DNA of 64,000 bases from Hymenoscyphus infarciens (taxonomy: Eukaryota > Ascomycota > Leotiomycetes > Helotiales > Helotiaceae). Location of the stretch: the NCBI GenBank assembly GCA_001414345.1, contig LLCB01000038.1, positions 214,343 to 278,342 of the forward strand, given 5' to 3'. Numbering within the stretch: position 1 is the first letter of the stretch; each line of letters opens with the position of its first letter. A model generated the notes under the pieces. It ran no database searches and was not told the DNA's origin. It worked only from the letters and a program-made list of their open reading frames with translations. This document shows, piece after piece, positions 11,005 to 44,789 of this stretch. The position numbers were made by a program, and so were the translations under genes.

Positions 11005-11196
11005 ACCATAGGCATACTTTTCCTACCTTCTGTAAGGCCGTGCCCTTAATAAAGACACTACCTTTACATAGCTTCTTTAGTATAAAGGATACGTATAAAG
11101 CTATAACCTATATAGTACCCTATAAATATATAGGTATATAGAAGGCTGAATATACTTATAAGTACTAAACTATAATCTCTAGATAATAGATAAGCT
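11005..11196 (+). repeat. Left terminal inverted repeat of the giant element
   Basis: It begins ACCATAGGCATACTTTTCCT and aligns to the reverse complement of 44593-44789. I aligned the outer ~142 bases by eye: about 18 differences, every one a C/T or A/G transition, with no gaps. Beyond that the match continues with small gaps up to the AGATAATAGATAAGCT word. Transition-only divergence is what independent RIP of two identical copies produces. Confidence 0.88.
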
Positions 11197-11320
11197 ACTA
11201 ATAATAAATAAGCTACTAACTAAGTAATCTTTAGATTAACAGATAAGCTACTAATAACAGATAAGCTTAGATAAGCTACTAATAATAGATAAGCTACTAA
11301 TAATAGATAATTTATAAACT
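11180..11320 (+). repeat. Left subterminal repeats, AGATAAGCTACTAATAA-like
   Basis: At least six imperfect copies of a word close to AGATAAGCTACTAATAA lie directly inside the left terminal repeat. Copies of the same word in reverse orientation sit inside the right terminal repeat, so the arrangement is symmetrical. Confidence 0.75.
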
Positions 11321-13680
11321 AAGTAATTGTAATAAAAAGGCGTTATAATTCAATTTACAAAGGTATAATCAGCTTATACTTTATATAATAAGCTTAGAAT
11401 TAGTTATAAACATTTCTAAACTAGTAATACTTAAAGGAAGAAGTTATTAAATTTAATATATAATATAACAAGTAAATAAAGGAAAAGCCTCTTTTATAAA
11501 TAATAAGTTACTTATCTATAATTACACTACCTAATACTACTACTAAGAGGGTAGAAAAGTAGTAAATAAACATTATCTTAATTCGCCTTAGTTTTAATAT
11601 TAGTACTATTTATATAGTTAGTATTTAAAGTATTAGGACAAGAAAATAGAAATTATAGCTCTTAACCTATAAGTAAATCGCTATAGATTATTATATCCTC
11701 TATTTTTATAATCTCTTACTTAAGTTACTTACTCTCTTATTACTACTTATTAGTATAATATATTTTAGAAAGGATAGAAAAACATATATTAGCTTATTTA
11801 ACCTTAGTATTATATATAGCTATCTTACTTCTTATTATAGTTGAAAGCTAATAAAGTCAGTCTAACGTATAGTAATATAAGAACTAGTAATATACTTTAA
11901 GTACTTAGTTATAAATATATTTATTCTTCTTTACTATATAGTTATATACTCTTTCTTTTATATTATACTTCTGCTTTTAGAGGGCATCTTTTATAGCCTT
12001 CTTCTTAGAAGCCTTTTACTTAGACTTATTACTCTTAATAAAAGTCTATTTAAGTTAAAGAATATAATCTATTAAATTTTTAATAGTATCTATATTTAAT
12101 CTAACTTTTAAAGTACTAAGCTAATCCTTTATATAGAAGGTATAGTAGTAACCGTTTATTTTAAAAAAGGTAGTATTGTTTATAAAGGCCTTTTTATTAA
12201 TATTTACTACTTTTAAAGCTCTAGCTTTAATACTAGTAGTTAAGAGATTAAGAACTATCTTTAAGGTAGGTTAAGGAAGCTTTTAAGTAAGGTTAAAGTT
12301 ATTAGAAGACTAGTTTTTTAGAAAAAGATTCTTAATAATATTTATATTAAGCGGTTAGAGAGTAATAGAATCTACTAGTATAGGAGCTATAGTAGTGTTC
12401 TTAGGAGAGGTTAGTATTATAAAGGTGAAGTATATAGAGCTTACTTATAGAGGTATTAGACTATAACAGAGCCTTAGAGACTTTACTAATAGCTTAGAAG
12501 GGTCTATCAAAAAGGATATATCTAAGTTTAGGTATTTAAGGTTAGGTTCTTTAAGAGTATAAAAGTTGAAAAAAAGTTGAAAGTTTAGAGTTAGTTATAA
12601 GTAAGATACGCTCTCTTAAAGAAATCGCGTAAAGGTGCTCTTATATAACTTTAGTAACGTTAATATAGAGTTCTTACCACTATTAATTATAAAGCTAAGG
12701 TAGTATATAAAGGGTTAGATAAGCTAGAAAGTAACTAGTAAGCTATATCTACTAGATATAAGGCCGTTATAGGTAGAATACTTATAATAGACGTTTTATA
12801 CTAATTCGCCTTTACTACTTAACTTCTAAGCTTATATTCTAGTTTTTAAGCGTTTTAGAGTAGTATATAACTCTAGTATTATTAGTATATCTTTTAGATA
12901 CTTATTCTAAGGCTTTTAGTTCTTTTAGGCCTAGGGCTTTTAAGTATAAGTTACTTCTATGTTTTAACCCTTTTAAAATCGATACTTTTTTAGCCTTTCA
13001 AAGGCTTTTCATAACCTTAAAACTATACCTACATTTAAAGCAGCTAGTATTACTTTAATAACATTATTATTATAATCAGTCTTAGTCGCTATATCCTTTT
13101 ATTCTCCTTCTTTACTTTAGCTATATATTAATACTAACTTAGCCACTCCCCTCTCTAATACTACTAGGTCTATACTTCTTAAGCTGTTTCCTCTTTCTAG
13201 AATCTTTCTCATTTACTTTATTACTTTTACTTATTAGAAAATCGTTAAGTACTTTAGAAGATTAAAGTACCTAATATAATAATTAAGTTAGGTGAATTTT
13301 ATATTATAGTAAGCCTTATAAATACTCTAGTTAATTATAAAGTAGAGACTTTATAAAGTTTAGTAAGAGAAGAATAAGAAGTTTACTAAAACCTCCTTTT
13401 AAATATATATTTTTTCTATTTATAAGGCTAAGCTTAAAATAGGAATTAATTATATAATTTTAGTAAAAGCCTCTAAGAGGTTTTTTACATAGATTATATA
13501 GGCTATAATTAATTAGGTAGTCTTAGGTAAGATAACTAGTTATATATACTTTATACTCTACTATAGATTATATTATAGCTATTTAGTATAGCTTACTCTA
13601 TACTTTAAAATAGCGAAGTAGTAGTAGCTAATATAAGCTCTTAGATAAGCTACTTTTTAACGCTTACTCTAAACTACTAA

Positions 13681-14130
13681 TTCATAGATTATCTCTCCTA
13701 AGTTATATAGCTTATTACCTAACTTATAGATCATCTCTTCTAAATTAAATAGCTAATCTCTTAATTTATAGATTATCTCTTAATTTATAAATAATCTCTT
13801 AATTTATAGATTATCTCTTCTAAATTATATAACTAATCTACTAACTTATAGATTATCTCTTCTAAATTAAACAGCTAATCTCCTAATTTATAGATTATTT
13901 TTTCTAAATTATATAGCTTATTACCTAACTTATAGATTATCTCCTTTAAATTAAATAGCTAATCTTCTAATTTATAGATCATCTCTTCTAAATTATATAG
14001 CTTATTATCTAATTTATAGATTATCTCTTAATTTATAGATAATCTCTTAATTTATAGATTATCTCTCTTAAATTATATAGCTAATCTCTTAATCTATAAA
14101 TAATTGCCTAGTTTATAGATAAGCTACAGG
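13681..14130. repeat. Degenerate tandem array, TTATAGATTATCTC units
   Basis: About a dozen imperfect units of 28-36 bp combine a TTATAGATTATCTCTTCTAA-like part with a TTATATAGCTTATTA-like part. The TAGCTTA core is the reverse complement of the TAAGCTA core of the subterminal repeats. Confidence 0.75.
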
Positions 14131-15799
14131 TAAGCTAGTAAGCTGCTAGTTCGTAAGTCAGCTACTAAACCTTAAGTAAGCTTCTTAAAAAGCTTACTTA
14201 AATACTTTTAAAATCTAGCTTACTTACTTATAATAATATGATAAATCTTAAATATAATTCCTAGTATATATTTTATAGAGATATATATAATATTATTATA
14301 GAGAGAGATAAGAGCTTAAGAAAATCAGTTAAATTAAGCCTCTTCTATAATACTACATAGTAATAAAGTATATATAATTTAAAAGGCCTATAGTGTAATA
14401 TTAAGGTATAAAAATCCCTATTTAACCTTAATTAGTAATAAATATATTAATTAAGACCTATAAGTATAAGATGCCTCCTAATACAAACTACTTCTAAATA
14501 TATAAATAAAAAAAAAGTATATTATTAAGCTACTAAAAGACAAATTAAAAGACGAATTAAAAGAAAATAGAAAGATAAATTAAATCTCTTATATATAATT
14601 AAGCTACTAATAGTAGAATTAAATTAACTATATATAGCTAAGCTTCTAAAAGATAAATCAAATCCTTTATATATAATAGAGCTATTAAAACATAAATAAT
14701 AAACTAGTATACTAACTTATAAATACTATTTAAGAAGAAAATAATATAAAAGGAAAGCTAACTTAAGTTACTTCCTCTTAGGCTTAGTCTTTTTAGCTAT
14801 AAGGAGTATAGGTAGCAGTATACGGTTTTACTTATGCTTTTGAATTTAGGCTAAGAGGTTAGTAATAGTTTCTATAAACTCTATTTAAGAAGTAGGAAGG
14901 TATACTTATTTACTTTAAGGTAAGCTTTCTATATAGTCTATTATATACTTATTTAAGGAAGAGGATTTAGTATTATACTTATTTAAAAGAGTACTAGAGA
15001 TATTACTATATTAAACGTTTATATCTATATATACTATTATAGGTAAAGAAGGAGACTAGCTACTAGCTAGTAACTAAATATATAATATTACTTTAGCTAT
15101 GGTTTTTAGACTAAAGTAGTTTACTATGCTAACCTTAACTTAGTTAGTACTTTCTAATATTAGGTAAATAAAGTTATCTTAGTATTATAGTATTTCTAGT
15201 AGAGATATAGAAGGAATAATATTAAAGAATTAAGATAGCTAGTTTAATAGCAATAAGAGAGGTATTAAATAGTTACTAAGAGATTATATATATTATATTT
15301 ATAATAAGGAAAGAGACTTTAATATATAGCTAACTAAGAGCTATAGCTATTATAAAGAAGCCTTATAGGTAGTAAGGCTACTAGTTATAGCGTTATTAGT
15401 AGTAGTATTAGTAGAAGGAGATAAAGTTTATTATACGTTATTATTAAAATATATTCCTCTTAGGAGATTAGTACTATAGTTACTACTATTATTCTATATA
15501 AATTTATTAAAATTAATATTTTTAACTTTAAAAAAGAGAGATAAGAGTAGTTTATAAACTCTTATAACTCTTATTACTTTAGCCTATTTATCCTTCTTTT
15601 ACACCTCTTATATCTTAAGCTAAGTATTATCTAAGATATATAAGCTTAGTTTAAAAGTAGATCTAAGCTATAATTAAACTTAGAGTTAAGATAGAACTTT
15701 AAAAGTAGAATCTAGGAATTAAGTATACTATAGCTAAGATTAGACTAGAACCTTAATAAGTTAGATTTTAATCTTAAGACTAAGTAGGCTCTTAAGAGT

Positions 15800-16030
15800 A
15801 TGTTATTTAGCCTTTTTACGTTTCTTTTACTATTTAAGAGCTCGTTCCTTCTCTTAGCGCTATTAAATATCAACTTCTTTCTCTATAAGGTTATAATAGA
15901 ATCTAATTATATTTATTTACTTAGAACTTATTATATAGCTAATAGTATAGAGGATAAGCTTAATATTATAATATCCTTTATTCTTATTTTTATCTTTCAA
16001 GAGTCTCTTATATTTAGCTTTCTTCTATAG
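15800..16030 (+). other. Hydrophobic 76-codon open frame, probably fortuitous
   Basis: This is the only ATG-initiated frame of 60 or more codons in the 34-kb block. The translation is dominated by Leu, Ile, Phe and Ser, which is what T-rich RIPped DNA encodes in any open frame. There is no homology clue, and I do not regard it as a gene. Confidence 0.3.
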
Positions 16031-17749
16031 TAAGGTTATATTATCTAGGGCTATAGGAATAAAATTAACCTAGAGCGCCTATATAAGAGAGCTACTAATT
16101 AAGTTAGCTAGCCTCTTAATAAATATAGTCTCTTATTAAAGATAAGACTTCTAATTCTTAAATACGTTCTAGACTTTATACTCTAAACGTTCTTAGATTA
16201 TAGTATTATACTTAAGATTAGTAAAACTAAGGTCTTCTAAAAGAGAGTTATATACCTTTTATAGACGCTTAATTTCTAGTATTCTATTATTAAGCTTTTT
16301 CATAGTCTTAGTAAATCTAAAGTCCTCTTTAATTAAGTAGCTAGTAACTACTTAGTAAGCTTAAATATCTTAAAAATAGCTTATACTAAACTTAACTTTT
16401 TAGTGTTATATAATAACAAGAAGCGACATTCTATCTAGTATAGTCTTATAAAAGGGAATACTAAAGTCGGCTTTACTTAAAAGTTAAAGGTCCTTATTAT
16501 TTATACTATTATATAGAACCTAGTACTAGTTTATATTAGTAACCTAAACACTAAACTCAAGCTTCTTAGTATTTATAATCACCTCTTCGTTAGAGCCTTT
16601 ACTAAATAGTTTAAGTAGTATAGTAGAAACTTTATAGATTCTATAGTAATAGGCTTCCTTATTATTAGCTAATAGTAGGAATATAAGCTTTAGAAAATCA
16701 TAATAATACTAGAAGTAGTTAGTTATTATTATTATTCTAGTCTAAGCTATTATAAAGGTAATACTATTAGTAAAGGTAATAATTAGAAGTGAACTTTTAT
16801 AAAGTTATAAATTTAAGCTATATTATAAATCTTAAAAAGATAATTAGAAGAGTATGAGAATCGCTACCAAGTTTACTTTAACTTATTATAAAAGGGAATT
16901 TAATTAGATTAAATTAGCTATTAAACTATATTATTACTAAGTTTATATAGTAAGCGTAGAAGGGAATATAACTAAATTAATTAAACTCTAAAAGGTATAG
17001 AAACGTTTCTAAGAGGTATTTATAAGGACTAGGTTAGAGGAAGTAGTAGTTATAAGTTTAGTAAGTATAGTAGATAACCTAATTCTTTAAGGTATATAAT
17101 AGAGTATATAGATTTTTATAATTATATAACATATTTACTAAGCTAGAGCTAGAGAACCTTAAAAGTCTATAACACTACTATTATATACTTAAACTATCCT
17201 TCTCTTTTACTTAATATTAATCTTATTAAAAGTATTATATAGAGTATAGTATACTTTTACTAGAGAAACACTTTTTAAATACCCTACTACTCTATACATC
17301 TACTTAAAGCTATCTTCTAGCCTACTCTATAATTCCTAGCTCTTTTTCTAGTTAATTATATAATAATAGCCTCTTCTACTTAGCTTTTAATTTAATACCT
17401 AATTATAAGTTAAGTCTATATTTACTAAGAGAATACTTACTTTTTACAAGCTCTAAGAGTCTCTATATATCTTAAAGACTATATAAACAAACTCTGTTTT
17501 CTTACTCGCCTTTTATTAAAATCGTAATTAAATAATAATACTATAATCTTAGATATTATTATAAAATACTATATTTTATAGAAGGCTCTCTAACTATAGT
17601 GCTAAGAGAAGGAGTATTATACTAAGCTATAAAAGTATAATAATTATTAAGTATCTTATATCTACTAAGATAAAAAGTATTCATTTTACTAACTATACTT
17701 ATATAATAGGCTCTATAATAATTTATATCTAGTCTAATATTAAATATCT

Positions 17750-17950
17750 CTTATAATACTCTCCTCTTATCTACTTATTACGATAACCCTTTCCTAGTCG
17801 CCTATTATAATACTCCTCTCTTATCTACTTATTATAATAACTCTTTTCTAGCTATCTATTATAATACTCCTCTCTTATCTACTTATTATAATAACTCTTT
17901 CTTAGCTACCTATTATAATACTCCTCTCTTATCTACTTATTATAGTACTA
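17750..17950. repeat. Tandem repeat, 54-bp period
   Basis: The CTATTATAATACTCCTCTC word recurs at 17802, 17856 and 17910 with partial units on both sides. The period of 54 is a multiple of three, which leaves open that it was coding before RIP. Confidence 0.75.
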
Positions 17951-18889
17951 CTTTTACTAAATATAGTATAAATACTCTATCTCCTACTATTAGTAGGCTA
18001 ACTTCTTATAATGGATTACTAGAACATAGTAATTATTACGTTTTAGGACCTAAAGAGCCTAATAGTCCTATTTTACTTATTCGTTCTTCTAATATAAAGT
18101 TCTCTCTTAAATATATTAGTTCTTATTCTTTCTTCTACTAATCGATTCTAACCTACTATAAGAGCTCTAAGAATACTAGTAACCTAAGCTTATATCCTTA
18201 CACTCTTAAACGTTAGAAGTAATTAAGATATAAGCTACTTAAAAGCTTCTCTCTAAGCTTAATATAGTCTTCTCTTATATATATAATATTATAAATAAAG
18301 ATAGAGAGGATGTTTAGATATATAAAGCTCTTATAAGTTTACTTATAAATAATTTCTTTGCTTATCTTAAAAGCTATATAGATTAATATATATACTTTAT
18401 AAAAGGTACTATTAATATATTAGACGTAAAAAAGACTATTAATAAATAGACTAAGAAGTAGAGGAAGCTATAAGCATTAGCTTATTATTAGTAGACAAAA
18501 ACTATAGAGGAATAGTAGCGTTAGACTAAAGAGCTTGTATAACTTTATAAAAATTCTATAAATCTCTAACTAAGACTTTATAGAAAGAGGAATATACTTC
18601 TAAGTATAGGTCGAAGATCTATAAGCTAATTATAATAGTAATAAGTCTCTAGTAGCTCTTTATACTATATTTAAGTTAGAAATAAATATATATAATACTT
18701 CTTACTCTAAGATAGGAATTAAGATAAATATAGATAGTATAGATATAATTATTATAAATAGTTAGAGTTTATATCTAAGTAATTAATATAAAGGAATTAG
18801 TATATTTATAATAAATAACTTTTCCTCTTATATACTCTTTTAATTCTAGTACTTTAAGATTAATAGATAGATTTTTATTAGTTAGTAAG

Positions 18890-19070: not shown

Positions 19071-22000
19071 TATTAATCTTTACTATCTTAGAGGCTTATA
19101 TAAGTTTCTATATATTATAGACAGAGACATAGTATACTAAAAAGCACTATACCTTAGAAGTAGCTAGTTAAACTAACGATTATTTTATTATATAATTTTA
19201 ATAAACATTATCTATCTTACTATTCTCTTCTCTATTAAGTATTTAATCTTCCTTAATATTTAAAATCTTAAATACTTTATTTAGAGTATTAGCTTACTTA
19301 ACTACGTCTTTATTATTCTTACTTCCTTCTATTTTAAATAGATCTTCTTCTATCTCTTTAATAGCCTTCTTAGTACTATCCCTATTACCTATACTCTTAC
19401 CTATTTATTAAGATATATAAGCTTTACTTCTATTATCTTCTTACTTTTAAAAGCTTAGTAGTAATAAATTCAAAGAATCTAAAGTATCTATATAGTTAGA
19501 AATTATATTATAATCGAGTATAAAGGTAAATAATACCTTTTAATCTCCTCTTCTACTCTAAGTCAGTATACTAGTCATTATAATTAAGTACTATATTAGT
19601 AATAGTAATTCTATAGAGAATATTATACTAGAATAGTATAGAACTAGTTATATAGCCTCCTAGCTAATACTAAGATACCTATATATTAAGTAATACTTAT
19701 AAAGTATTATATATCTACTTTACTAACCTTATCTACTTATATAAAAGTAATTCCTTCTCTTTTATATACCTTTATAAATACTAATAAGTATTAATACTCT
19801 ATAAGATAATAATATTATTTATAAACTAAAAGTAAAGTATATTAGTTAGTAAAGATAGTAAGATAACATCTTCTTATACTACTTTATATTACTATATTCT
19901 CTAATTTAACTTAGTTTTAAGTATTTCTAGGTTAAATATTTTTAATAAGATCTTCTTAAAGTAGGATTCTAGTAGGAGGTTATTTAAGAGTTTTTCTATT
20001 CTTTAAGCTTGCTTTTAGAGTATAAGTAGACTAGAAGATAGAGTATTAGTATTTTCTTATTATAAAGTTATTTAGAAAGAATAGTATCTTAATTACCTAC
20101 TATTTATAAAAGCTCTAAAATAACTAGCTAGCTTTTTTAGTTCCTTTAGTATTATACTAGTTATAGATATTCCTCTACTCTTAAATTCAGGCTATTGTTT
20201 AGATTTAGAATTAAGTAAACTCTTTATTAATATAATACTAGGTCTATAACTTTATATACTATACTTAGAGGTCCTCTCTCCTAGTTTACGCCTATTCTTC
20301 TTAAGATTAGCTAGTTATAAGTAATTCTACTTCTATTATAGTAATAGTATTAGCTACTATTTTAGTAATACTCTATCTTCTAGATAGATATTAGGTAACG
20401 TAAGAATTCTATATATAAGGTAGCCTTTTAGAAACTAGTATTAGTATTTCTATTATAACTAAGTATTTGTCTTACTTAACTTACTAATTTTCTTTTATAT
20501 TATTTTTATAAAGAAGTAACTAGAAGAGTCTCTTATATAGCCTTACTACTTTTATAGTCTAGGTAGTCTCTTTCTTCTTAGTAAACTATTATAACTATTA
20601 CTTAGTATAATTATTAAGTATATCTAAGATCTTATAACTAGTTATAATTATCTCTTTTAATAGTAAGTATTAGTAGACTTTTTTAATCTTAGTAGAATAT
20701 TAAATCTCTTTTTTAAGTATACGCTTATACTTTATATCTAAATAAGTACCTAGCTAGAGTAATTAAGCTTCTCTATAATACTATGTTTAGGAATTTAGAA
20801 TACTTTCCCAGTTCTCTAGTAATATAATTTAGTATAATAGAATAAGATATAATTTACTACTCTAGTCTCTTTCTACTCTCTCTCTATCTAACATTATAAG
20901 TCCCTTAGTATAAAATAGACTTTATAGAAGCTAGTATTCAAGAGTATATATATATTAGTATATAGTATTTATTATAAATTTAACTCTTAAACATGTCTTA
21001 AGGTATCTCTGTTATATATATAGAGTAAATTTATATATAATATTATACTAAACAAAAGTATATACGTTTAATAAGAGTCTTAAAAGAATACTTTAAAGTA
21101 TATAACTTATAATCTTATATTTCTTACCTTAGTATTAATTTACTAACTTAAGCGTTGTCCTATATCTATAAACTATATTTAAAAGTCTAGTTTAGTTAAG
21201 ACTCTTAAATTACTTTATAGTACTTATACCTCTTATAGCTTTAAAGTAATACTTATATCTCTTATCTACTCTAATCTTATTTTCTTCTTTCTCTTATATT
21301 TAATTACTAGATAGATTACTAGTAAGAATAAGATTCTTAAAACTTATAGTAATCTCTCTACTAAGTAGGTTTAGTATAAAAAAGCCTCTCTAAAAATAAC
21401 TTCTAATAAAATATTAATTAGATTTAATTTCTTACTTATACTATTAGTTTCTATTATAGCTCTAATAGTATAAGCGTTCTAGCCTAGTATTAGAAGCTTC
21501 TTTATAGAAGTAGGCTAGGTAAGTATACTAGAGTAAGGAGGTTATAGTCTATATACTATAAGAGGTACTTATACTCTTAGAACAGGCGTAGGCATTCTTA
21601 GTCGAATAAGAAGTTTAATAGGTTTAAGTATTATTAGTAGAATTTTAAGAAGCTTAGACAGTTAAATAAGAGTCTTAAATTTCTTAATTAAATAGTATTT
21701 AGTAGTACTCTATAGTTTTAATCTAGTTAAAATATATATACTCTTATAGCTTCTATAGGTCTAGAATATAAATAAAGTATTTAAGTTAAATAAATTATAT
21801 AAGACTATATAACTATACTTATTTAGAAATCTTTCTAGTTATAATAATATAATAAAAGAATTCTAAGAGGTCTAGATAAAAGGCGATTTTAGGGTTATAG
21901 AGATCTATTATTTTATTAGTTTTAGTATCTTCTTATTTAGTTAAAGATAAATAAACCTAAGAGAAAGTAACTAGCTTTTATAATTAATATTAGCTTAGAC

Positions 22001-27470: not shown

Positions 27471-27844
27471 GGTAGATATTTCTTCTTTTTTAACTAAATA
27501 ACTTTTCCTTTATATCTAAATAAGATTTTATATATATAGCTTACTTATAAATTTTATTACTTATTAATATATTAGCTTACTTATAAATTTATTAGCTTAC
27601 TTAGCTATCTCTTTTTTAATAATCTTTAAAAGCTTTAAATTATTTAAGTCTTAAAATCTCTAAAAACTTAAAATCCTTAATCTAATTAATAATAACTAAT
27701 AAGAAAATAACTAAATAAGAGAATAAAATAAGTAAATAAAAGAAGTAAATAAGAAATATAAATATAAGAAGTAAATAAGTAAAAAGGTAATTAAGAAAAA
27801 GTAGAAAACTTTAAAATATTAAATAATATATATTATATTTAAGT

Positions 27845-28390
27845 AAGTATATTAGTAAAATCTAAGTAATCTAGTAGAATTTAATAAGTAAGCTAGTAAA
27901 TCTAAGTAAGCTAGTAGAATTTATTAAGTAAGCTAGTAAATCTAAGTAAGCTAGTAGAATTTATTAAGTAAGCTAGTAAAATCTACTAAGTAAGTAGTAA
28001 AATTTAATAAGTAAGCTAGTAAATCTAAGTAAGCTAGTAAAATTTACTAAGTAAGCTAGTAAATCTAAGTAAGCTAGTAGAATTTATTAAATAAGCTAGT
28101 AAAATCTACTAAGTAAGTAGTAAAATTTAATAAATAAGCTAGTAAATCTAAGTAAGCTAGTAAAATTTACTAAGTAAGCTAGTAAATCTAAGTAAGCTAG
28201 TAGAATTTATTAAGTAAACTAGTAAAATCTACTAAGTAAGTAATAAAATTTAACAAGTAAGCTAGTAAATCTAAATAAGCTAGTAAAATCTACTAAGTAA
28301 GTTATAAAATTTAATAAGTAAGCTAGTAAATCTAAGTAAGCTAGTAAAATTTACTAGGTAAGCTAGTAGAATTTATAATAATCTTAGAGA
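27845..28390 (+). repeat. Long AAGTAAGCTAGTA tandem array
   Basis: More than twenty copies of a TAAGTAAGCTAGTA(A/G)A core alternate in higher-order pairs (one followed by ATCTAAG, the other by ATTTATTAAG) over 0.55 kb. It is the largest of the AAGCTA-core clusters in the element. Confidence 0.8.
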
Positions 28391-30744
28391 AACTAGTAAA
28401 ATATACTATTATAAATAATAAGTAAGTTAATAATAATTTATTTATTTAAAGTTTTCTTAAAATAATAAGTTATAAAGAAAGCTAGACTCTAGTTAAGTAA
28501 TCTACTTATAAAATATAGTTATAAGTAAAGAATTTATATATTATAAATAAAAAAATTTATAAATAAAATAAAGCTAAGAAGCTAGTAAGAATTAATTAGT
28601 ACTAGAAAACTAAATACCTAGTAGGTTTATATAAAGCTTATTAAAAATCCTTTACTATATAGTTTCTAGTTTAAGATATATATTCTTTTCCTTATACTAC
28701 TATAGAATTAAGTTATCTATTATCCTCTTAATATTAGTATAGACTATAATACCTTTTAATACTATTATATTCTTTATTTCTTATACTAGAAGTAGTCTCT
28801 TTTTTACTCTTTTTAAGCCTATTACGATATTAAAACCTTCTAATAACTTTTAACAAATAATACTATATATCTTTTCTACTTATAATTTCTTTCTTTAACT
28901 ATAAAGGGTAGGACTAATTATTAAAGAATTTAGGTCTATTTGCTTATAAGGTAATAGCAATCTATCTCTCCCCTTCTATATATAAACTCCTTTATCTATA
29001 TCTACTAATAAGAGTCTTAACATAGCTTTATTAGCTTAGTTTAAAAAGGTAAAGTTTCCTAATTTAACAAATCCGTTAAAGAGAGTAATACTAAGTCTAA
29101 TATCTTTAAAAACCTAGTATATTCTTATCTCTCTTTTAATATATATAATAGTAGTATATATTCGAGTTCTAAGTATAGAGCGATTACTAAGGTAGCTTAT
29201 AATATTAATACTAATATAGTCGAGCTCTTTTATCTATACTAGTGTTAGCTAGCTATATATCCTCTTTTTTAGAATAACTTATAATCTATACGTAAGTATT
29301 TAGTAATAGCCTTCTTTTTTCTAGTCTTCTTCTTTTAATCTCTTAGTACTATGTCTTATAAAACTTAATATCTAGTTATTCTTTTAAAAGAAGTAGTAGT
29401 AGTTATATAAAAGCTTTAAAGAAGTATCTCTCTATATTAGTAGTAAGTTATAACTTTTCTTTATTAGATATTAAGTTATACTTTAATACTTAAAAAGTTA
29501 ATCCTTATCTATTAATAGGTTTTAAGCTATCTTACTTTTTCTATATTCTAGAGCTCTTTAAATAGAGAGGTATCTTATACTTCTTAATCTTTTAATAGTA
29601 TTACTATATACTTTAACGCTAGGGTAGCTTAATAGTAAAAGTAGAGACCTTAAGAGTATTATATATATATAGGAGAATATATTATATATTAATTATATTA
29701 TGTTCTATAAGGTTTTATAGTTACTAGTAAAAAGTATTTAATAATTTAATTATACGGTTTTTAGTTTCTAGTTATAACTCGTTTTCTTATAATTTATATA
29801 CCTTATTATTAATAAATAAAGAGGACTTTATACTTAAAGTATAAATATTATTAACATAAGGTAAAAACATAGCTAGCTTCTTACTTCTAGTATCTAATAT
29901 TAAGTTAGCTTATCTATACTGTTTTTTAGCTTATACTCTTCCTCTATCTTAGATAAGGTAATAATATAAATTTATACTTATAACTAATTAATATATAGAC
30001 TAGTTTACTCTAAGAGCTTAGTTAGATAATTCTTAACTAAAGAAATATTATAGTATTATTAGGTATATTAGTTTAATAGTATACTTATTATATAGTAGAT
30101 ACTATATCTCTAGAAAAGAAGTAAGCTAATAAAACTTATAAGCTAGCTCACTTTCTTACTATTACTAAGAGAGGATTAGTTTAAATAGTCTTAAGGAAGT
30201 AAAGATTGTTTCTCTTAAAATATAAGAGAATATAACTATTATAAGATATAATAAGATAAGGAAGGGAATAGTTTCTACTAGTTATTAAGTACCTATTTAC
30301 TAAGAAATAAGGAACTAATAAACATATATAGCTAACTTATTTACTAGCTTATTATGTTATATCTAAGTAAATTCTTTAAGAGAATTAAATATAGTATACT
30401 ATTCTTAGTCCTTACTTAATATAAATTTCCTTAGTTATATAAGCCTAGGCGTGTTAGTTATTAGTAGTTAATATAGTTAATATGTTAGAGTTAGTTATAG
30501 TACTTAAAATTAATAATAATATAGTAGTATTATTAAGTATCTAGTAAGGAAGATAGAAGAGACTTACCCTAAAAAGAATAATTAGAATTATAAATAAAAC
30601 TATATAGTTTAGTTAAAGAAAAGGAAAACTATGCTATTATATTCTTAAGATAATAAGTCTTACTAAAAGCACTTATATAATAAATAGACATACTATATAC
30701 CTCTAATATACTACTACTACTATAGAGAATTAATAAAGAAGGTA

Positions 30745-30925
30745 GTAGAATTAACAAGTAAGCTAGTAGAATTGACGAGTAAGCTAGTAGAATTGACGAG
30801 TAAGCTAGTAGAATTAACGAGTAAGCTAGTAGAAGTGATAAGTAAGCTAGTAGAATTGACGAGTAAGCTAGTAATAGAGAGTAAGCTAGTAATAAGGAGT
30901 AAGCTAGTTAGTAAGAGAGGAGAGA
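30745..30925 (+). repeat. Tandem repeat, 21-bp period, weakly RIPped
   Basis: Units of AGAATTGACGAGTAAGCTAGT repeat with a 21-bp period. The array keeps TG and CG dinucleotides that are rare elsewhere in the element, and has the same GTAAGCTAGT core as the 27.8-28.4 kb array. Confidence 0.8.
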
Positions 30926-33900
30926 GGTAATAAGCTAGTAAATTAATAAACTTTTCATATAAGTTATACTAGGCACTTATAGTATAGCTAGACCTCTTCT
31001 AGTTATAATTAGCATTTATTATACTTTAGACCTAGTAGTTATATTTAATAAAGATTCTACCTAATCTAGTATCTACTATATTATAAGTTACCTCTCTTAT
31101 TATTTAAACCGTGTTTTATTAATTTATCGTAAGTTAGCTATAAGCAGGTTATCTTATTCTTTTACCTTTTAGAGAGCCTTTTTCTAGTAGATATTTAGTT
31201 CTAAATATATAATTTTATAACGAAAACGCTAGCTTATATCCTTATATAATAAGAGCTAAGGGTATAGCCTCTTTAAGAAGCTATAAAGGTTCTAAGTTAT
31301 AGTATATATACTTCTAATATAGTTCTTTACTATTCTAAATAGAGGTAAGGGGCTAGTAGTAACTAGCTAAAGAGGATTGATTATTACTCGTTAGTAGCTT
31401 TAGTAAAAGCAGGGTTTATAACTATTTTATAGGTTAACTACTAGTAGGTGTAGGAAAGCTATGCTAGGTATTATAACTATATAGCTATAGAGTAGAGGTA
31501 AGCTATTAGTTATAAGTAAGCTATATCTAAGAGATAAGATAAAGAGTAAATAAATAAATAATTTAAAAGAGCTACTTTACCTAGCTTATTACTAGAAGAT
31601 TAATTACTTAAATAAAATAGATATCTATAAAGGATTAGCTTACTATAAACTAAAGAATTAGCTTATAATAAAACGTATTTTATATAAGAAAATAGACAGA
31701 TTTTTAATAATCTACTACTAAATATCTTAGCTTTATATAAATACTCTAAGCTATTAAAAGCATCTCTTAGGATTTATTTAATAAATATATACTATTAATA
31801 CTATAGTAATTAAAGATATAGACTTTAGAAACCCTACCTCTTAAAAGCCTTAATACTTAAATAGTAATATTTTAGAGAAGAGCTTAACCCCTTTACTTAT
31901 AGTTATAAACCTTAGTTATTATAAGTAATTATAGCTTTTAATAGATTACTTACTATCTTTAAGTCCCTTTACTATAATAACTTTATAGTTTAAGTAAATA
32001 TAGATTTCTACTTCTAATAAGTACTCTTTATTAGATTCTTATTATTCTTTTAAGTCTACTTTAAATCCTTAGTCTCTAATAGCTACCTTATAGTTATATT
32101 ATTATAAAGAAATATAGTATTCTACTAAGTACTTTTTATTAAATCCTTAATCTACTATAAGTACTTTATATTATTATAAGAAAACGTAGTATTCTACTAA
32201 GTACTTTCTATTAAATCCTTAATTTATTATAAGTACTTTATATTATTATAAGTAAACGTAGTATTCTTTAAATTAAAATAATATTAAGGAATTATAGCCT
32301 CTTATTATTTATATACTACTTTTAAGCCTCTATTTTAAATAGTTTATATATGATTTTAATAAATCTCTATTATTAAGTCCTCTCTCTACTCTTAAATCCT
32401 TATTATTAAAGTAAATAGATAATATTAATAGATTACTTCTTACTATTTATACTTTAACTTTAAATCTATATTTTAAGTAGCCTTTATAGTATCTTAATTA
32501 TTTAGGACCTCTTATAGAGTATTTAAACCTTTTAGATCTCTCTCTTATATAAATCTTTTTTAATAATACTAAGTTATCTTTAATAGAATCTTAATAAGTT
32601 TCTCTTATTATATCTTCTAAGACCTTATATAAGGCTTAGTCTTATATTATTAAAAAGAGGTTAGATATTATTAAAAGGAAGGCTTAAAACTTTAAAGATA
32701 GTAAGAAATTTTTTAATTATTACTTTATCTTTAACCTAATATTAATATAGGACTTTATTCTATATATATATTCTAATAGTCTTTATTTTAAGTAAATATA
32801 TTTATAATAAGTAAATTAAGTAATTCCTATAAATCTTACCTTTATAGAAGATAAGCTTAAAGACTACTATATTAATACTTAACAAATAGAAGGCTAGAGA
32901 GAGAACTGCCTATTTAATTCCTTAGTCTAAAATAGCTAGAAAAACCTTTTACTGTTCTTATATAATAAGCTAGAAGATAGTAATTAGATATAATAGCTAA
33001 ATAGAATTAAGTATATTTTTAAATCTTCTCCTCTTCCTAATACTACTATTTAGTTATATAAGAAAGCTTTAAAGGTCTTATATAAACTTATTAAGTATAG
33101 TTATCTTAGTATTTAGATAGCTTAAAATAAGATGTTTTATTATAACTAGACTCGACTTATACTTAGTAAGGACGATATTAAGCTTAAGCTTTATATTATA
33201 CTTAAACTAGATATAGGTATTAGTTTTTATTATTATATTTTTACTCTAGTAAAGTTAGTAGTTATTAATACTATACTTTAGAGGCCTTTTATTAACCTTA
33301 TTATAGAATTATTCTTTATATTTTATATTATTAAAGGTAAAGATAAATAGTTACTTATAGACGTAATTATATAAGTAAGACGTAACTGTTACTATATTAT
33401 AGAAGCTTTAGACTGTTTTTTCTATAGCTAATTTAACCCTCTAGATTAGTTTATAAATAGTAAGATTAATTAGGCTATCTAAATATATTCTATCTACTTT
33501 AATAAATCAACTACCTAAGTCTTTATCTACTTCTATATTACTAAGATATATAGAGAAAAGCTTATTTAGATATACTATATATATTCTATCGCTCTTTTTT
33601 ATATATTAGATATACGAGTATGTAAAAACTATATATATAAGGTCTATATTAATATTATAATATAGAGCCTAAAGATTTTCCTCTCTAGAGTTTATATATA
33701 GATTCTAAATATTATATAAATTAACCTAGCTTTTTAGAAAGCAGCTACTAAGTATTAAACTATAGATAAGAAAGAGAGATAGAATAGAACTATCTCTTAT
33801 AAGGAAGATGAAATAGTTGTTAATAAGTATTTTAAAACTACTATTAGAGATATAGATAAAATTATTATTAATAAGGTTTTAAATAAAGCTATAAATAAGA

Positions 33901-34729
33901 GTAAAACGAGAGTAAGAACGTATAAAATAGAAGCTAGTAGAGCTAATAAGAGATTAAACTACTTAGCTTATAAAGAGGAAAATCTATATTCTACTACTTC
34001 TAAGCCTTCTTATTCTATACCTTTTAAACTAAGGAAACACTAGGTAGATATAATTAATAGGACTCTACTAAAGAGATATAAAAAGGTATAAGATAATATA
34101 GTAGATCTAGGCACTTAAAAAGCTTATATTACTAGATAAAGTATAACGTAGTATATATAAGCTTTAGAAATTCTCCTTATTAAGAATTAGTACTAATATA
34201 GTAGTATGCTAAATATAGAGTCTTAAGTTTAAAAGTTAGTACTCTTTAGTTTTATAGTTTTATTTTTATTTTACCTTATTTATAAATAATAAGTATATTT
34301 TATAATTTATAATAATAATAAAATAATACTAGATATATATTATCTTTTACTATTCTATATCTAACTTTTATTATTCTATATCTATCCTCTCTAGTAAAGT
34401 GTTATAGCTAAACCTACCTATTTATACTAAAAAGATAGTAAACGTTAACCTCGTCGTCGCTTAACCTTGTTATTATTTAACTTTATTATTAATACTAAAA
34501 GTTATAAAATTAAAACTATTTATAAATATTAAATTCTTAAATTATTAAAACCTTTTACTATTTAATATCTAGTTTTTAATATACTATACCTAATCTATAA
34601 AGAAGTATTATAAAATATATAGTAAGTATATACTAAAAGTGTAAAAATATAATATATATAACACTTCTTAAAGCTATAAAAAGTATTTTCCTAGAATATT
34701 ATAAAACTAATCTTAATTAAATATTAAGC

Positions 34730-38219: not shown

Positions 38220-38345
38220 AATAAGAGACTAATTATAACTTACGTCTATTTAAGCTTATCTACTAATATAAGCTTACCTACTAATACGAGCTTACTTACT
38301 AATATAAGCTTACCTACTAATAAGAGCTTACTTACTAAGATTTAA
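38220..38345 (-). repeat. Cluster of AGCTTACCTACTAATA words
   Basis: Five copies of an AGCTTACYTACTAATA unit (about 20-bp period), the AAGCTA core in reverse orientation. Confidence 0.7.
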
Positions 38346-38919: not shown

Positions 38920-39032
38920 TATAATAGTAATAGGGGTTTATAATAGTAATAGGGGTTTATAATAGTAATAGGGGTTTATAATAGTAATAGGGGTTTCATA
39001 ATAGTAATAAGGGTTTTATAATTATAATAGGG
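38920..39032. repeat. Tandem repeat, 19-bp period
   Basis: Units of ATAATAGTAATAGGGGTTT repeat about five times with a strict 19-bp period, then decay. GGGG runs give the array some G-quadruplex potential. Confidence 0.85.
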
Positions 39033-41768
39033 TTTTTTAAATTTAGTTTATTTATATAAATATATTTAGGTTTTCCTTCTCCTTTATAAGTATAATTATA
39101 ATTCAAATAAGTATAATTATCTAGTAAGCTCTTATTTCTAATAAATAAGCTAGCTAGAGAGTAAGCTAGGAAGTAAGCTATAACTAATAGATAAGCTAGC
39201 TAGGAGGTAAGCTATAATTAACTAGTAATTAATATTTAGAGTAAATATAAGGAATATTAAGTAAGTTCTTCTACTAGCCTATATACTACTTAATAAAGAG
39301 TACCTATAATAAACTAAACTTATTATAGTTATTAGGTAGTAGTAAAATCCTAACCTAGCTACTTAAAACATCGGCTTCTTATGATTCTATAATATAGTTA
39401 TTAAGTCTATTATATAGTATTAGAATATAGTTAAATATATATATTATATAAAGCTAAAACAGCTTATTCTAATAAGTATATAGATTTTTATTTATCTAAG
39501 CTAATAATATTCTTACTTAAATATCTTTACTATAAGATACTAAAAGACGCTATTTTAATATAATAATAGTTTTATAAGATACTTTAAAGGAAATTAATAA
39601 TATAGTAAAATAAAAACTCTAAGTACTATATAGGTAATTAGATTTAGTTAAGGTAAGTTTCTATTTAATATACGTTCTTTATAATTTTAAAGCTTATAGT
39701 TAAGTAGATAGCTACTTATAGTTACTTAAAGAAGAATTATAGTTACTTAAAAAAGAATAGGCTTTTATATCTTTTATTTAAAAGACTATATTATTAAGTA
39801 ACCTTATCTTCTTATAACTATACTTTAATTTTATCTTTCTATATCCTTATTATTACTCTACTAACTTATAAAGACTCTTTATCTTTATAAAGCTTTAAGT
39901 TAAACTATTTCCTACATTCTTATACTTATACTTATACTTATATACTAAAAGATCTATAGTCTACTAGCTTTTAGTTAATAACAGAGTATATACGAGTATT
40001 AAAATAGTAAGATAATAAGTAAGTCTTTATAAGTCTCTTAAGTATATATCTTAATTTTTCTCCTAGCTTTTTATACTTATATAATTAATTAGTATATCCT
40101 TCTAAGTCTATACTCGCTTTTAAAAACTCTTTATACTCGCTTAATTAATTAGTATATCTCCTTAAGTCTATACCTACTCTTAAAGACTCTTTATACTCGC
40201 TTAATTAATCGGTATATCTCTTAAAATATATACTAGCTCTTATAAGTCCTTTAAGTATATAGTCTAATTCTCCTTCTAGTTCTCTATACTCGCTTATATA
40301 CACTATTAAAGATCCTAACTCTTTATACTCTTTTAATCTATTACTATATCTCTTAAAGTATATACTAGTATTAAAAGACCTTAAGTTATATTATTAGTTA
40401 TATCTTAGGTTATAGTATTTAGAAACCTAGATTAACTTAACAATTACTTTAGCTAGTATTAAAATTCTTATATCTTATCTATATCTTCTATTCTCTCTTT
40501 TAAATTTTTAATAACTACTTAATAATACGTTATCTAGCTAATCTAGTAATATAGTACTACCTAGTAATATAGATAGTATTAGAAATGTTCTACTATTAAT
40601 ACTACTAACTATAAAATTATAAAAATTAAAATAAGCTATAGTAGAAATTATTAAATATATAGAATATTATAAGATATATCTTATATAATAAGGATTTAAT
40701 ATACTTAAAGTAGTTAATACTATACTATTTAATAAGTTTAAGAAATAGATTAAAGGTTTTTTATATTTAAATAATTAAAAAATAAAAACATAGCTTACTA
40801 ACTTAATATAAAACATTAATACTCTTAATACTAAAGAGAATAAGAATACTATTCTAGAAAAGATGTTTAAAAAAGTCTAAATAGAGAAAGTAATACTCTT
40901 AAAGAAATACTTAACTCTAGCTTCTTAAAAATAATAAAAGAAGAGTATTAAGTATATTCTTTTAAGTCTAGAGAACGGTAGTCTAAAGGTTACTAAGTTT
41001 AAGATAGCTCTATTAGGTGTATTTTTAATAGATAACTTATTTAATAAAGAATATAAACAAGTTAATATTAGAGATATTAATATATAAAAGAAGACTAATA
41101 CTACCTTTAAAAGTATATTAGTTTCTTTTTAACACCTTACTATTCTAGATAATCCTAATAATTACTATATCCCTAATATAGTACTAGATTAAGTATATAG
41201 TTATAAACTTAAAGTATTTAATTACTAAGTATAGGAATTACTATTAAAGGAGAAGATAAAACTAGTTATTAAAATTACTACTCTTCTATACTTTATCTTT
41301 CTTATTATAGAAAGAAAGAGTAATAGATCTCTTAAAGAGGCTAAATATTAAGCTTACTATAGTATAATTATTATTATATAAGCTTTAAAGTGGTTTTACT
41401 ATAAGTCTTTTAAGCCTCTAAACGACTTTTAAGAGAGTTAAATTAACTAGAAGACAACTATCTAGTTAATTTATTTTTATAAAAACATTATAAGTATAAA
41501 TATCTATTTCTATACTAAGCTCTAAGACGACGAATTAGAGTATTATATTTAAGATTATAATATATATTAGTTCTCTATCTTTAGTAGTATAAGTCTAGTA
41601 ATATATAAGAACTTTATATACTATTATTAGGTTAAGATCTAGTAGTAGGCTTAAGATATATAACTACTAGAGATTAATATATAATTAAGTAAATATTATA
41701 ATTATAGCTTTCTAATAAAGGACTTTATAACTATATAATAGTTAAAATTAATATAACTTTACTAAAAG

Positions 41769-42026
41769 GTTCTAGTTAAAGAGTAAGTTCTAGTTAAGAA
41801 AGATATTCTAGTTAAGGAAGGGATTCTAGTTAAGGAAAGGATTCTAGTTAAGGAAGGGTTTCTAGTTGAGGAAGGGTTTTTAGTTAAGGAAGAAGTTCTA
41901 GTTAAAGAAGAAGTTTTAGTTAGAGAAGGAATTTATTATAAAGGTATTTATTACTATAGTAGAGAGGTTAATATAGAGAAGTATAAAGCATCTCTATCCT
42001 TTAAAGGTAAGGGTAGAACTATTTAA
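41769..42026 (+). pseudogene. Relic coding sequence with a VLVKEG hexapeptide repeat
   Basis: Nine exact-length 18-bp units (41769-41930) read in one frame as (V/I/F)LV(K/E)E(G/E). The frame is open from 41787 to a TAA at 42024-42026, 79 codons, unusually long for this block. Upstream, the same frame can be followed to about 40.9 kb if TAA and TAG are taken as former Gln codons, but the stop density there approaches the background, so only the repeat and the segment after it are firm. The Lys/Glu codons contain no CA or TG, so they resist RIP; that may be why the repeat survives. I do not recognise the protein. Confidence 0.5.
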
Positions 42027-42483
42027 CCTTAAAAGTATAAAGGTAACTAACTAATATATTAATAGAATAGAGTTTTTATAGTAGATTATACTTACTTATT
42101 ACTTCTTTTACTTTATAGTTTTTACTTCTTTCTTTTCTCTTACTTTTTAATCCTTTTTCTTATCTAATAATTACTAAACTATATCTTTAAAGTTATTTAC
42201 TTTTCTTCTTTTCTTTTCTTCTCTCTTAATAGATTCTTTAATAGTAAGTAAACAGAAAGGGGTTATTTTTAACTATTAGATACTTATACTTTTTCCCTTA
42301 CTCTAGATAATCTATAAATAATTAAAATATAAGTTATAAAAGCTATAATAGTATAGTAATATATAACTTAAGTAATATATAACTAGAGTAAGCTTAGAAG
42401 TTAAAATCTTTTACTTTATATATATATAAGAATTTTATAGTAAATTTCTCTTTTTAATCTTTTTAATAGTATACTACTTTAAC

Positions 42484-42592
42484 AGCTTACCTCTTTTAGA
42501 TAGCTTACCTCTTTTAGATAGCTTACCTCTTTTAGATAGCTTACCTCTTTTAGACAGCTTACCTCTTTTAGATAGCTTACTACTTTTTGTTA
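42484..42592 (-). repeat. Tandem repeat, 18-bp period, AGCTTACCTCTTTTAGAT
   Basis: Five to six nearly perfect units at 42484, 42502, 42520, 42538 and 42556. The AGCTTAC core is the reverse of GTAAGCT. The uniformity contrasts with the decayed surroundings. Confidence 0.85.
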
Positions 42593-43119
42593 GATATTTA
42601 ATAGTAAATTAATTCTATCTACCTAGGGCTTTAATAACCTTATAAGAACTACCTACTTAATAGGCGTTTATTATTCTTAAAATAACTATCTTTTAGCTTT
42701 AAATATCTTTAGTAGTAAAACTTATATCTTATATAAGATACTAGTAGCTTATATCTTACCTTTATAATTACTTTATAACTAAACTATACTCTTAGCTCTA
42801 ACTCTCTTTAAGTATATATATCTTATATATAATACTAGTAAATATATTCATCCTAAGTAGCCTATAGTCTTACTTTTATAAGTACTTTATAACTACTATT
42901 TTTACTATATTTATAATATATACTTTCTTATTACTATTAATTAGTTATCTTTTACTATATATTATACTCTTCCTTCTATAAATATTAAGACTACTAATAA
43001 GCTAATAATATAATAAAATAGATCTTAAAAGGACTACTAAAAAGGGTAGTAGATATTATAAGATAGATTATGCTTTATATAGAGGATAAAAAACACTATC
43101 TTTAATTTATTATTCTCTT

Positions 43120-43330
43120 AAAAGATATAATATTCTTTAAAGATAGTAAGAAGAAGAGGAAATAGTTAGCTAAGAAGGGGATTTAAAAAGAAGAAGAGGA
43201 AGAGGAAGAGGAAGAGAAAGAAGAGAAGGAAGAGTACTACTAAGAGGATATAGATAAGAAAGGGAATAAAAAAGAAGAGAAGGATATTATAAAAAATAAA
43301 GATATTCTAAAAGGAGATACTATATAAGTA
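43120..43330 (+). pseudogene. Relic coding tract, Lys/Arg-rich then Glu-rich
   Basis: One frame reads KDSKKKRK, then after a TAG LAKKGI, then after a TAA a run of Lys and about 13 Glu (43180-43240), followed by more Lys/Asp/Glu-rich sequence to about 43325. A basic, nuclear-localisation-like patch next to an acidic tract is typical of disordered regions in nuclear proteins. Purine-only codons are immune to CpA/TpG mutation, so this part of a gene would outlive the rest. The family is unknown. Confidence 0.4.
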
Positions 43331-44489
43331 GTTGTTTAATAAGACTAATTAATAAAAGACTAAGCTAGTGCCTTAACTATAAAGGAATTATATATTAACT
43401 TATAAAGGAAGCTTAATAATATACCTCTTTTAAAGGTAATATAGAGGAGTATATTAATTAACCTTATATTATAATAAAAGAGTAACGTTTTCTAATTTTT
43501 TTAAAGATCTAGCTATTTTAATAAAGCTTATATACCTAGTAATATCTAGTAAGCTCTACTCTAAAATATACATTTCTATAATAATAGCTTTAATAAAATC
43601 TTAAACTATAAGCTTAATAATATTATAAGGAAAGTAGTTAAGAATCTTAGGGCTAAACTTCTTATAAAAGAGTTAGTATTTTTATAGAAAGATAGGCTAC
43701 TAATTTAGATAAGATATATAGATTTATAGTTAACTAGTAATATATTAATTACTAAGAAGTTTATTAGATTAGTTAAGAAGAAAGCTATCTTAGTAGTATT
43801 GATTTTATTAGAAGCTATAAGCTTATACGTTATAAATAACTAGAGGAGGAAGATCGTAGTAATCTTAAGTCTTAGAGACTAAGAGCTAGAGCTAAAACTA
43901 GCTATAATAGCTAATAAGTTATAAGTCTCTATATTTAATCTTTTAATACTAATAAAGTTATTATAGGCTTATTAGTACTAATAATAGATATAGGTAATTA
44001 GTAAGTTATAAAGCTAAGTAAGACTAATTATAACCTTATTATAAGTAGTAGTTCTTTTCTCTTAGTATTTAAGTAGTAATTACTAATTTAAAATAGAGTA
44101 ACCTTTTTCTAGGACTAATATAATTAATAAGGTAGTTATTAATAGTATAGTATTATTACATCTATCTTAAGTATATAGCTTATTATAAGTATCTCTTAGT
44201 TAATAGATAACTTAATATTTTATTTTATCTATTTTAAAAAGAATAAAGAATTGTATTTTCTATATATAAGTTAAATAGCTCTTCTTTATATACTACCTCT
44301 ACTAGTAAATTCCCTCTAATAGCTTGTTACTTAATTCTAGGCTTATTGCTCTTCTTTATAAAATAATAGCTAGTTTCTCTTAATAAGTTACTCTTTGATT
44401 TTAAGCTTAATCCTTAGTAGTTAATAGCTTACTTAGTAGTTAAATAGTTCATTTATTACTATAAATTAATCTAAGATAATAGTTAGTAT

Positions 44490-44600
44490 AGGCTTATCTA
44501 CTATTTAAAAATTACCTAGTATATAGCTTATCTACTATTTAGAGATTACCTAGTATATAGCTTATCTACTATTTAGAGATTACCTAATATATAGCTTATC
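44490..44600 (-). repeat. Right subterminal repeats, 34-bp period
   Basis: AGCTTATCTACTATTTAGAG-like units start at 44491, 44525, 44559 and 44593, an exact 34-bp spacing. Read on the minus strand they contain the AGATAAGCT core found inside the left end. Confidence 0.8.
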
Positions 44601-44789
44601 TATTATCTAGAGATCACAGTTTAGTAGGTACTTATAAGTATATTTCAGCCTTTTATATACTTATACATTTACAAAGTACTATGTAGGTTATAGCTTTATA
44701 TATGTCCTTTATACTAAAGAAGCTACATAAAGATAGTATCTTTATCAAGAGCACGGCCTTACAAAAGGTAGGAAAAGTATACCTATAGT
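44593..44789 (-). repeat. Right terminal inverted repeat of the giant element
   Basis: It is the reverse complement of the left terminus, ending AGGAAAAGTATACCTATAGT on the plus strand. Shared landmarks include the AAGGTAGGAAAAGTAT word, the GGCCTTAC word and the CTTTATACTAAAGAAGCTA word, each present inverted at the left end. Confidence 0.88.

What the first reader, a model, noticed from the sequence alone, without database searches (positions are those of the whole stretch)
11005..44789. A 33.8-kb RIP-saturated block is bounded by ~190-bp terminal inverted repeats: a giant dead TIR element
The left (11005-11196) and right (44593-44789) ends are inverted copies. Over the outer ~142 aligned positions I count about 18 differences, all transitions, with no transversions and no gaps. 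Composition changes at exactly these points. AT-rich isochores are usually explained as heaps of nested RIPped transposons; here the ends say the block arrived as one unit. Size plus long TIRs resembles Maverick/Polinton-like or other giant transposons rather than known small fungal DNA elements. The class is inference.
Basis: partly seen in the sequence, partly recalled or inferred. Interest (0 to 1): 0.88.

Follow-up and report, generated by a model that had tools for sequence, protein, structure and literature searches.

The report
Giant dead KDZ-type DNA transposon family
The 34-kb AT-rich block is one dead copy of a family of unusually large DNA transposons (29-52 kb) in what looks like a fungal genome, with matching inverted ends, in most copies an 8-base insertion footprint, and remains of a KDZ-type transposase gene.

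Summary
Confirmed as a single mobile unit, but reclassified. The inverted ends (11004-~11196 / ~44593-44790) are real. In the window's own 65.6-Mb genome the left end gives at least 37 hits: 13 inward-facing pairs 29-52 kb apart and 11 single ends. At 11 of 13 pairs the flanks carry an 8-bp target duplication (6 perfect, 4 with one transition, the window copy 6/8 with two transitions); cross-paired flanks reach 6/8 in 0 of 156. A sister copy (C296, other flanks, own perfect duplication) is collinear along the unit with 2,316 transitions but 77 transversions: the ~34 kb moved as one piece and was then RIPped. The least mutated copy examined (C32) encodes a KDZ transposase with a CxC1 zinc cluster; that block and three others (B, G, E) lie in 13 of 13 paired elements, in five arrangements. 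So it is a giant KDZ (Kyakuja-Dileera-Zisupton) transposon, not a Maverick/Polinton. The fungal KDZ elements whose sizes I saw in print are ~9-11 kb. Functions of B, G, E and of the internal GTAAGCT repeats are unknown.

The parts
10996..11003 (.). left copy of 8-bp target-site duplication (TTCGTGGA)
   Evidence: 6/8 match to the right copy, both differences transitions
11004..11196 (+). left terminal inverted repeat (outer ~147 nt match the right end without gaps)
   Evidence: 37 hits in own genome
11183..11310 (.). left subterminal direct-repeat array (ATAATAGATAAGCTACTA-like units)
14762..16717 (-). remains of gene B (unknown function; present in 13 of 13 paired elements)
   Evidence: 23 TAG + 42 TAA inside the genome match
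17479..18577 (+). remains of conserved block H (coding status not tested)
19490..21896 (-). remains of the KDZ transposase region: block with KDZ domain 20853-21896 and downstream conserved block D 19490-20807; shorter DNA matches continue to 22216
   Evidence: KDZ PF18758 E 4.8e-4, below curated cut-off, in this copy; E 1.1e-15 in the C32 copy
27837..28376 (.). one of several tandem arrays with GTAAGCT-containing units
28604..29834 (-). remains of gene E (unknown function; present in 13 of 13 paired elements)
30726..30891 (.). second GTAAGCT tandem array (21-bp unit)
32418..34085 (+). conserved block A (no third-codon-position bias; coding status uncertain)
40998..41540 (+). weak match to block F, the DUF7924 protein of the C32 copy
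   Evidence: 28.8% identity, E 6.6e-6; no Pfam hit in this copy
43004..43939 (+). remains of gene G; in 12 of 13 paired elements its match begins 680-1124 bp from one element end
44484..44614 (.). right subterminal direct-repeat array (34-bp unit)
44593..44790 (-). right terminal inverted repeat
44791..44798 (.). right copy of 8-bp target-site duplication (TTCGTAGG)

Best explanation
The block is one RIP-killed copy of a family of giant (29-52 kb, median 35 kb) DNA transposons of the KDZ superfamily. An element-encoded KDZ transposase with a CxC1 zinc cluster presumably recognised the terminal inverted repeats (5'-CACCACAGGCATACTTTTCCTACC...) and moved the whole unit by cut-and-paste, leaving 8-bp target duplications. 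The elements carried at least three other genes (B, G, E) that show coding constraint from before RIP; gene order was shuffled by inversions between constant ends. The copies examined were then inactivated, to different degrees, by repeat-induced point mutation. Shown: ends, duplications, multi-copy unit, KDZ domain, conserved blocks, RIP. Inferred: that KDZ is the acting enzyme, the cut-and-paste chemistry, and any role of B, G, E and of the GTAAGCT arrays.
For: 13 inward-facing end pairs. 8-bp duplications at 11 of 13, cross-flank control 0 of 156 at 6/8 or better. C296 sister collinear along the unit: 2,316 transitions, 77 transversions in 33,336 aligned sites, own flanks and perfect duplication. 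KDZ PF18758 58.4 bits (cut-off 26.6) and CxC1 29.9 bits (cut-off 26.9) in the C32 copy. KDZ block, B, G and E inside 13 of 13 paired elements. Transversions, which RIP does not make, are concentrated at third codon positions in the KDZ block, D, B, E and G. KDZ1 of Cryptococcus neoformans has the same combination: KDZ + CxC1, 241-bp TIRs, 8-bp duplications (PMC12810828, passages).
Against: KDZ exceeds the Pfam cut-off only in C32; of the other four copies scanned the window copy scores 20.3 bits, C24 24.6, C703 none, C99 no KDZ and only weak CxC1, and a genome-wide KDZ profile search rings once, at C32. Catalytic residues were not examined. Two of 13 pairs (C225, C294) show no duplication; in C294 the outer end is altered. 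Of 11 single ends, C139, C222 and C320 have about 87, 30 and 47 kb of contig inward without a detected partner. Block A shows no coding signature; F is inconsistent (p 0.032, 0.37).
Confidence: 0.9

Rival explanations
1. Maverick/Polinton-like or other virus-derived element with long TIRs.
For: Size (29-52 kb) and ~120-190-bp TIRs; several genes.
Against: KDZ transposase found instead; 8-bp duplications, against 6 bp for Polintons (recalled); no DNA_pol_B_2 match in the genome (weak because the control genomes rang nowhere); no viral families in the frames scanned with Pfam (not all six frames of the interior were scanned).
Confidence: 0.03
2. Heap of nested RIPped transposons that happens to be bounded by an inverted repeat.
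For: Usual explanation of AT-rich isochores; in the 52-kb C220 copy the KDZ block is split by ~6.3 kb, so later insertions may occur in some copies.
Against: 13 paired copies with shared interior genes, matching duplications at 11, and a collinear sister of the whole unit; 21,462 of 33,787 bp of the window copy align to the other fetched copies without counting C296.
Confidence: 0.02
3. The giant units are composites: a small KDZ element whose ends mobilise captured cargo genes.
For: KDZ elements with sizes seen in print are ~9-11 kb; an open B-like gene with an inferred intron lies on C147, a contig without a TIR hit.
Against: B, G and E are present in 13 of 13 elements rather than differing from copy to copy.
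Confidence: 0.15
4. Starship-type element moved by a DUF3435 tyrosine recombinase.
For: Giant element in a genome with RIP, as in many Pezizomycotina.
Against: No DUF3435 match in the genome (control rang nowhere); long TIRs and a KDZ transposase.
Confidence: 0.01

Closest known systems
KDZ1/KDZ2/KDZ3 of Cryptococcus neoformans (PMC12810828, passages seen)
   Same: KDZ + CxC1 transposase, long TIRs (241/139/169 bp), 8-bp (KDZ1) or 4-8-bp (KDZ2, KDZ3) target duplications
   Different: ~11/9.2/10 kb in a basidiomycete; here 29-52 kb with at least three further conserved genes and internal repeat arrays, RIP-inactivated
Zisupton/Dileera elements (PMC12730594: abstract, first part of the results, section 3.3 and passages seen)
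   Same: KDZ superfamily; Zisupton has TIRs and 8-bp duplications; the Dileera element Zisupton-1_PGr makes 8-bp duplications
   Different: the ones described there encode TET/JBP genes; no Tet_JBP match here (control rang nowhere). Which KDZ lineage this is was not tested
'Icarus', 294-kb putative element of Pyrenophora tritici-repentis (PMC9594970, passages seen)
   Same: giant ascomycete unit with TIRs and DDE genes
   Different: its enzyme is unresolved and its authors suggest it is disabled; here 13 paired copies, duplications at 11, and a named transposase family
Starships
   Same: giant multi-gene fungal transposons
   Different: moved by a DUF3435 tyrosine recombinase; no match here (control rang nowhere)

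Membership tests
KDZ superfamily DNA transposon | KDZ transposase catalytic domain | tested here: met
   C32 copy E 1.1e-15, 58.4 bits, over cut-off; window copy below cut-off, E 4.8e-4; DNA of the block in 13 of 13 paired elements
KDZ superfamily DNA transposon | CxC-type zinc cluster N-terminal of KDZ | tested here: met
   C32 copy: CxC1 E 6.5e-7, over cut-off, residues 89-152 before KDZ at 241-435
KDZ superfamily DNA transposon | 8-bp target-site duplication (Zisupton, Dileera; two Kyakuja families make 7 bp) | tested here: met
   11 of 13 paired copies at 6/8 or better
KDZ superfamily DNA transposon | terminal inverted repeats (Zisupton-type; the two Kyakuja families have none) | tested here: met
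KDZ superfamily DNA transposon | intact catalytic acidic residues | not tested
   copies are RIP-mutated; residues not examined
KDZ superfamily DNA transposon | lineage: Kyakuja, Dileera or Zisupton | not tested
   no reference transposases were at hand; two protein database searches with the mutated gene found nothing at E <= 0.001
Maverick/Polinton | protein-primed DNA polymerase B | tested here: inconclusive
   no PF03175 match in the genome, but the control genomes did not ring either
Maverick/Polinton | 6-bp target-site duplication (recalled) | tested here: not met
   8 bp
Starship | DUF3435 tyrosine recombinase captain | tested here: inconclusive
   no match in the genome; control rang nowhere

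The most novel reading that the evidence does not exclude
A so far undescribed lineage of giant, multi-gene KDZ transposons: a DDE-enzyme counterpart of Starships whose B/G protein family and gene E are element-specific mobility or anti-silencing functions, perhaps acting on the GTAAGCT arrays that fill the element, and whose gene cassettes are repeatedly inverted between constant ends.
Probability: 0.35. Interest if true: 0.78.

Novelty: new variant of a known kind. Interest (0 to 1): 0.62.

Why it matters
It shows that an AT-rich block of a RIP-affected genome can be a single giant DNA transposon, and that a KDZ transposase can be associated with units of 29-52 kb, against ~9-11 kb for the three fungal KDZ elements whose sizes I saw. 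Giant fungal mobile elements have largely been classed by the DUF3435 captain of Starships; a TIR/KDZ class would be missed by such screens and erased by RIP. The 13 paired copies (482 kb) give a defined family for asking how large DDE transposons mobilise long DNA and why gene order is so fluid.

Tried and rejected
Maverick/Polinton, Starship and TET/JBP cargo were looked for by one profile each: no matches, but each answer warned that nothing rang in the control genomes, so these are weak negatives. Nested-heap reading rejected. Protein database searches with the mutated transposase found nothing; the first also limited candidates to proteins shorter than a typical KDZ transposase (typical length recalled). 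The search with the C147 B-like protein found two partial, unnamed relatives. A structure prediction of one of them had mean pLDDT 39.9 and was not used; no fold search was made. The window's insertion site showed no open frame of more than 70 codons across the rejoined flanks, 1.5 kb each side. Not all six frames of the interior were scanned against Pfam: 9 + 10 + 6 + 10 sequences were, one of them the C147 protein. A, H and F were not searched genome-wide by sequence. Host species not identified; 'fungus' is inferred from the RIP signature. KDZ lineage not placed. Inward distances for single ends were worked out by hand from contig lengths.
Full report
What was checked. Over 147 columns there are 19 transitions and one transversion, at the outermost base. 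The block is RIP-saturated. The composition step is sharp on the left, but on the right low GC trails ~300 bp beyond the end.

Is it one unit? The 192-bp left end was searched in the window's own assembly (65.6 Mb, 742 contigs; the window is contig C314:214343-278342). It gives 37 matches, a lower bound by the tool's own statement: 26 form 13 inward-facing pairs 29.0 to 52.0 kb apart and 11 are single. Inward distance to the contig edge for the singles: C313 4.3, C548 13.1, C275 13.5, C140 15.5, C741 18.7, C329 27.0, C222 30.1, C143 35.4, C249 35.6, C320 46.7, C139 87.5 kb (by hand). Those up to C329 can be cut by the assembly and C143 and C249 may be; C139 and C222 match only inner parts of the end, and C320 has room for a partner that was not found. 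Aligning the ends puts the terminus at 5'-CACCACAGGCATACTTTTCC. The 8 bp outside match 8/8 in six pairs (C296, C32, C192, C220, C80, C219), 7/8 in four (C24, C99, C703, C38) and 6/8 in the window copy; all mismatches in these eleven are transitions. C225 and C294 do not match (2/8 or less); in C294 the match starts 14 bp inside one end and the outer bases differ. Pairing every left flank with every other right flank gives 0 of 156 at 6/8 or better, maximum 5.

The strongest single result is the C296 copy: other flanks, its own perfect duplication, and collinear with the window copy along the unit in opposite orientation, with 2,316 transitions, 77 transversions and 698 gap columns over 33,336 compared sites; about 0.3 kb of C296 and 0.1 kb of the window copy, in a tandem array, stayed outside the best alignments. 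A transversion divergence of 0.23% with 30 times more transitions is what a recent duplication of the entire ~34-kb unit followed by RIP would leave. Without counting C296, 21,462 of 33,787 bp of the window copy align to other fetched copies.

What moves it? Protein-level blocks were found by comparing C32 with the window copy, C24, C99, C703 and four single-end stretches. C32 is the least mutated of the six full copies compared (GC 0.315). Nine translated frames from eight blocks of C32, X at stops, were scanned against Pfam: block C gives KDZ transposase (58.4 bits, cut-off 26.6) preceded by a CxC1 cysteine cluster (29.9 bits, cut-off 26.9); block F gives DUF7924; the other seven give nothing convincing. 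In the window copy the KDZ domain is visible below the cut-off (20.3 bits, E 4.8e-4; 17.7 bits), in C24 at 24.6 bits; C703 gave none and C99 only a weak CxC1. A genome-wide KDZ profile search rings only at C32, but a DNA search with the C32 KDZ region finds it in all 13 paired elements and on 5 of 11 single-ended contigs. Gene B is in 13 of 13 (and on 5 of the single-ended contigs), G in 13 of 13 (4), E in 13 of 13 (5); containment within the 13 elements was checked by coordinates. A, H and F were not searched genome-wide by sequence; the DUF7924 profile rings at C32 and at two open genes elsewhere, C653 and C37.

Were these genes? RIP makes transitions only, so transversions between subfamilies record older evolution. 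On frame-blind DNA alignments of C32 blocks to the other copies they fall by codon position as B 198/131/262, KDZ block 117/82/183, D 78/65/176, E 231/196/302, G 139/113/217 (chi-square p 6.1e-6 or lower each), A 108/114/127 (p 0.44) and F 44/34/46 (p 0.37). A frame-guided count agrees except that F reaches p 0.032. H was not counted. The comparisons share the C32 sequence and are not independent, so p values are optimistic. The pattern says that five blocks were read as protein while the subfamilies diverged. G of C32 and the B-like protein of C147 are distantly alike (25% over 142 columns, E 1e-6 for the single comparison), so B and G may be paralogous families; B of the element itself was not compared with G.

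Anatomy. The match to G begins 680-1124 bp from one element end and points to it in 12 of 13 elements (9.9 kb in the 52-kb C220). With G on the left, five arrangements occur: G- B- E+ KDZ+ (C32, C219); G- KDZ- E- B+ (C24, C294); G- KDZ- E+ B+ (C80, C225, C703); G- E+ KDZ+ B+ (window copy, C296); G- B+ E+ KDZ- (C38, C99, C192, C220). The first two differ by inverting the whole B-E-KDZ block. The interior holds many short tandem arrays, several sharing GTAAGCT/AGCTTAC; this 7-mer is 3.7-5.8 times its order-2 Markov expectation in all five copies examined (the window copy whole; interior stretches only of C24, C99, C703 and C32) and did not pass the listing threshold in the window flanks; 72 of 76 window sites lie inside the element. 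RIP-driven sequence bias may inflate this, though it is strongest in the least mutated copy.

Mechanism. Best supported: cut-and-paste by a KDZ transposase acting on the TIRs with 8-bp staggered target cuts, then RIP. The enzyme assignment is inference from co-occurrence in 13 of 13 elements and from known KDZ elements; it was not tested biochemically. The window copy is dead: the best matched stretches of B, E and G carry 65, 37 and 44 stops.

Comparison with print. In C. neoformans KDZ1 is ~11 kb with 241-bp TIRs, 8-bp duplications, KDZ and CxC1; KDZ2 and KDZ3 are ~9.2 and ~10 kb (PMC12810828, passages; preprint PMC12139950, passages). Kojima reports 8-bp duplications for Zisupton and for a Dileera element, and 7 bp without TIRs for two Kyakuja families (PMC12730594, abstract, first part of the results, section 3.3 and passages). 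A 2019 review of giant eukaryotic transposons has no occurrence of KDZ or Zisupton (PMC6431247, term counts and passages). Zisupton annotations exist in the ascomycete genus Sporothrix (PMC9281073, passages). 'Icarus' is a 294-kb putative TIR element with DDE genes (PMC9594970, passages). In nine answered searches of the open library and the passages named, I saw no KDZ element stated to exceed ~11 kb; most listed papers were not opened, and subscription papers, perhaps including the original KDZ description (Iyer et al. 2014, recalled), may not be held, so absence from print is not established. A tenth search, for DUF7924, listed one Neurospora paper, not opened.

Verdict. The observation and the one-unit reading hold; the class is KDZ, not Maverick. 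A giant variant of a known superfamily.

Noticed in passing
L035 4184-5316 (G000:C147 ~298.7-299.8 kb): An open B-like gene with one inferred intron in normal-GC DNA, near a short AT-rich patch; two partial database relatives at 92% and 80% identity. Possibly a host or domesticated relative.
   Followed up: partly
G000 contigs C446, C428, C469, C615, C271, C18 and 14 others: Short KDZ-region fragments (66-76% identity) on 20 contigs without a hit to this TIR: perhaps further KDZ families with other ends.
   Followed up: no
G000:C347, C549, C545, C552: Mutated G-like genes on contigs without a hit to this TIR, suggesting related element families.
   Followed up: no
G000:C653:6891-7562 and C37:60310-61002: Two open DUF7924 genes; the C32 element carries a mutated DUF7924 protein. 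Origin and function unknown.
   Followed up: no
G000:C220:48979-55250: KDZ region split by about 6.3 kb in the 52-kb copy, likely a later insertion; content not fetched.
   Followed up: no
window 6001-7000: A separate AT-rich patch (GC 0.26) with no GTAAGCT motif, perhaps a small RIPped repeat.
   Followed up: no
G000:C225:116842-151931: Paired element with good ends but no 8-bp duplication, as could follow from recombination between copies or a flank deletion.
   Followed up: no
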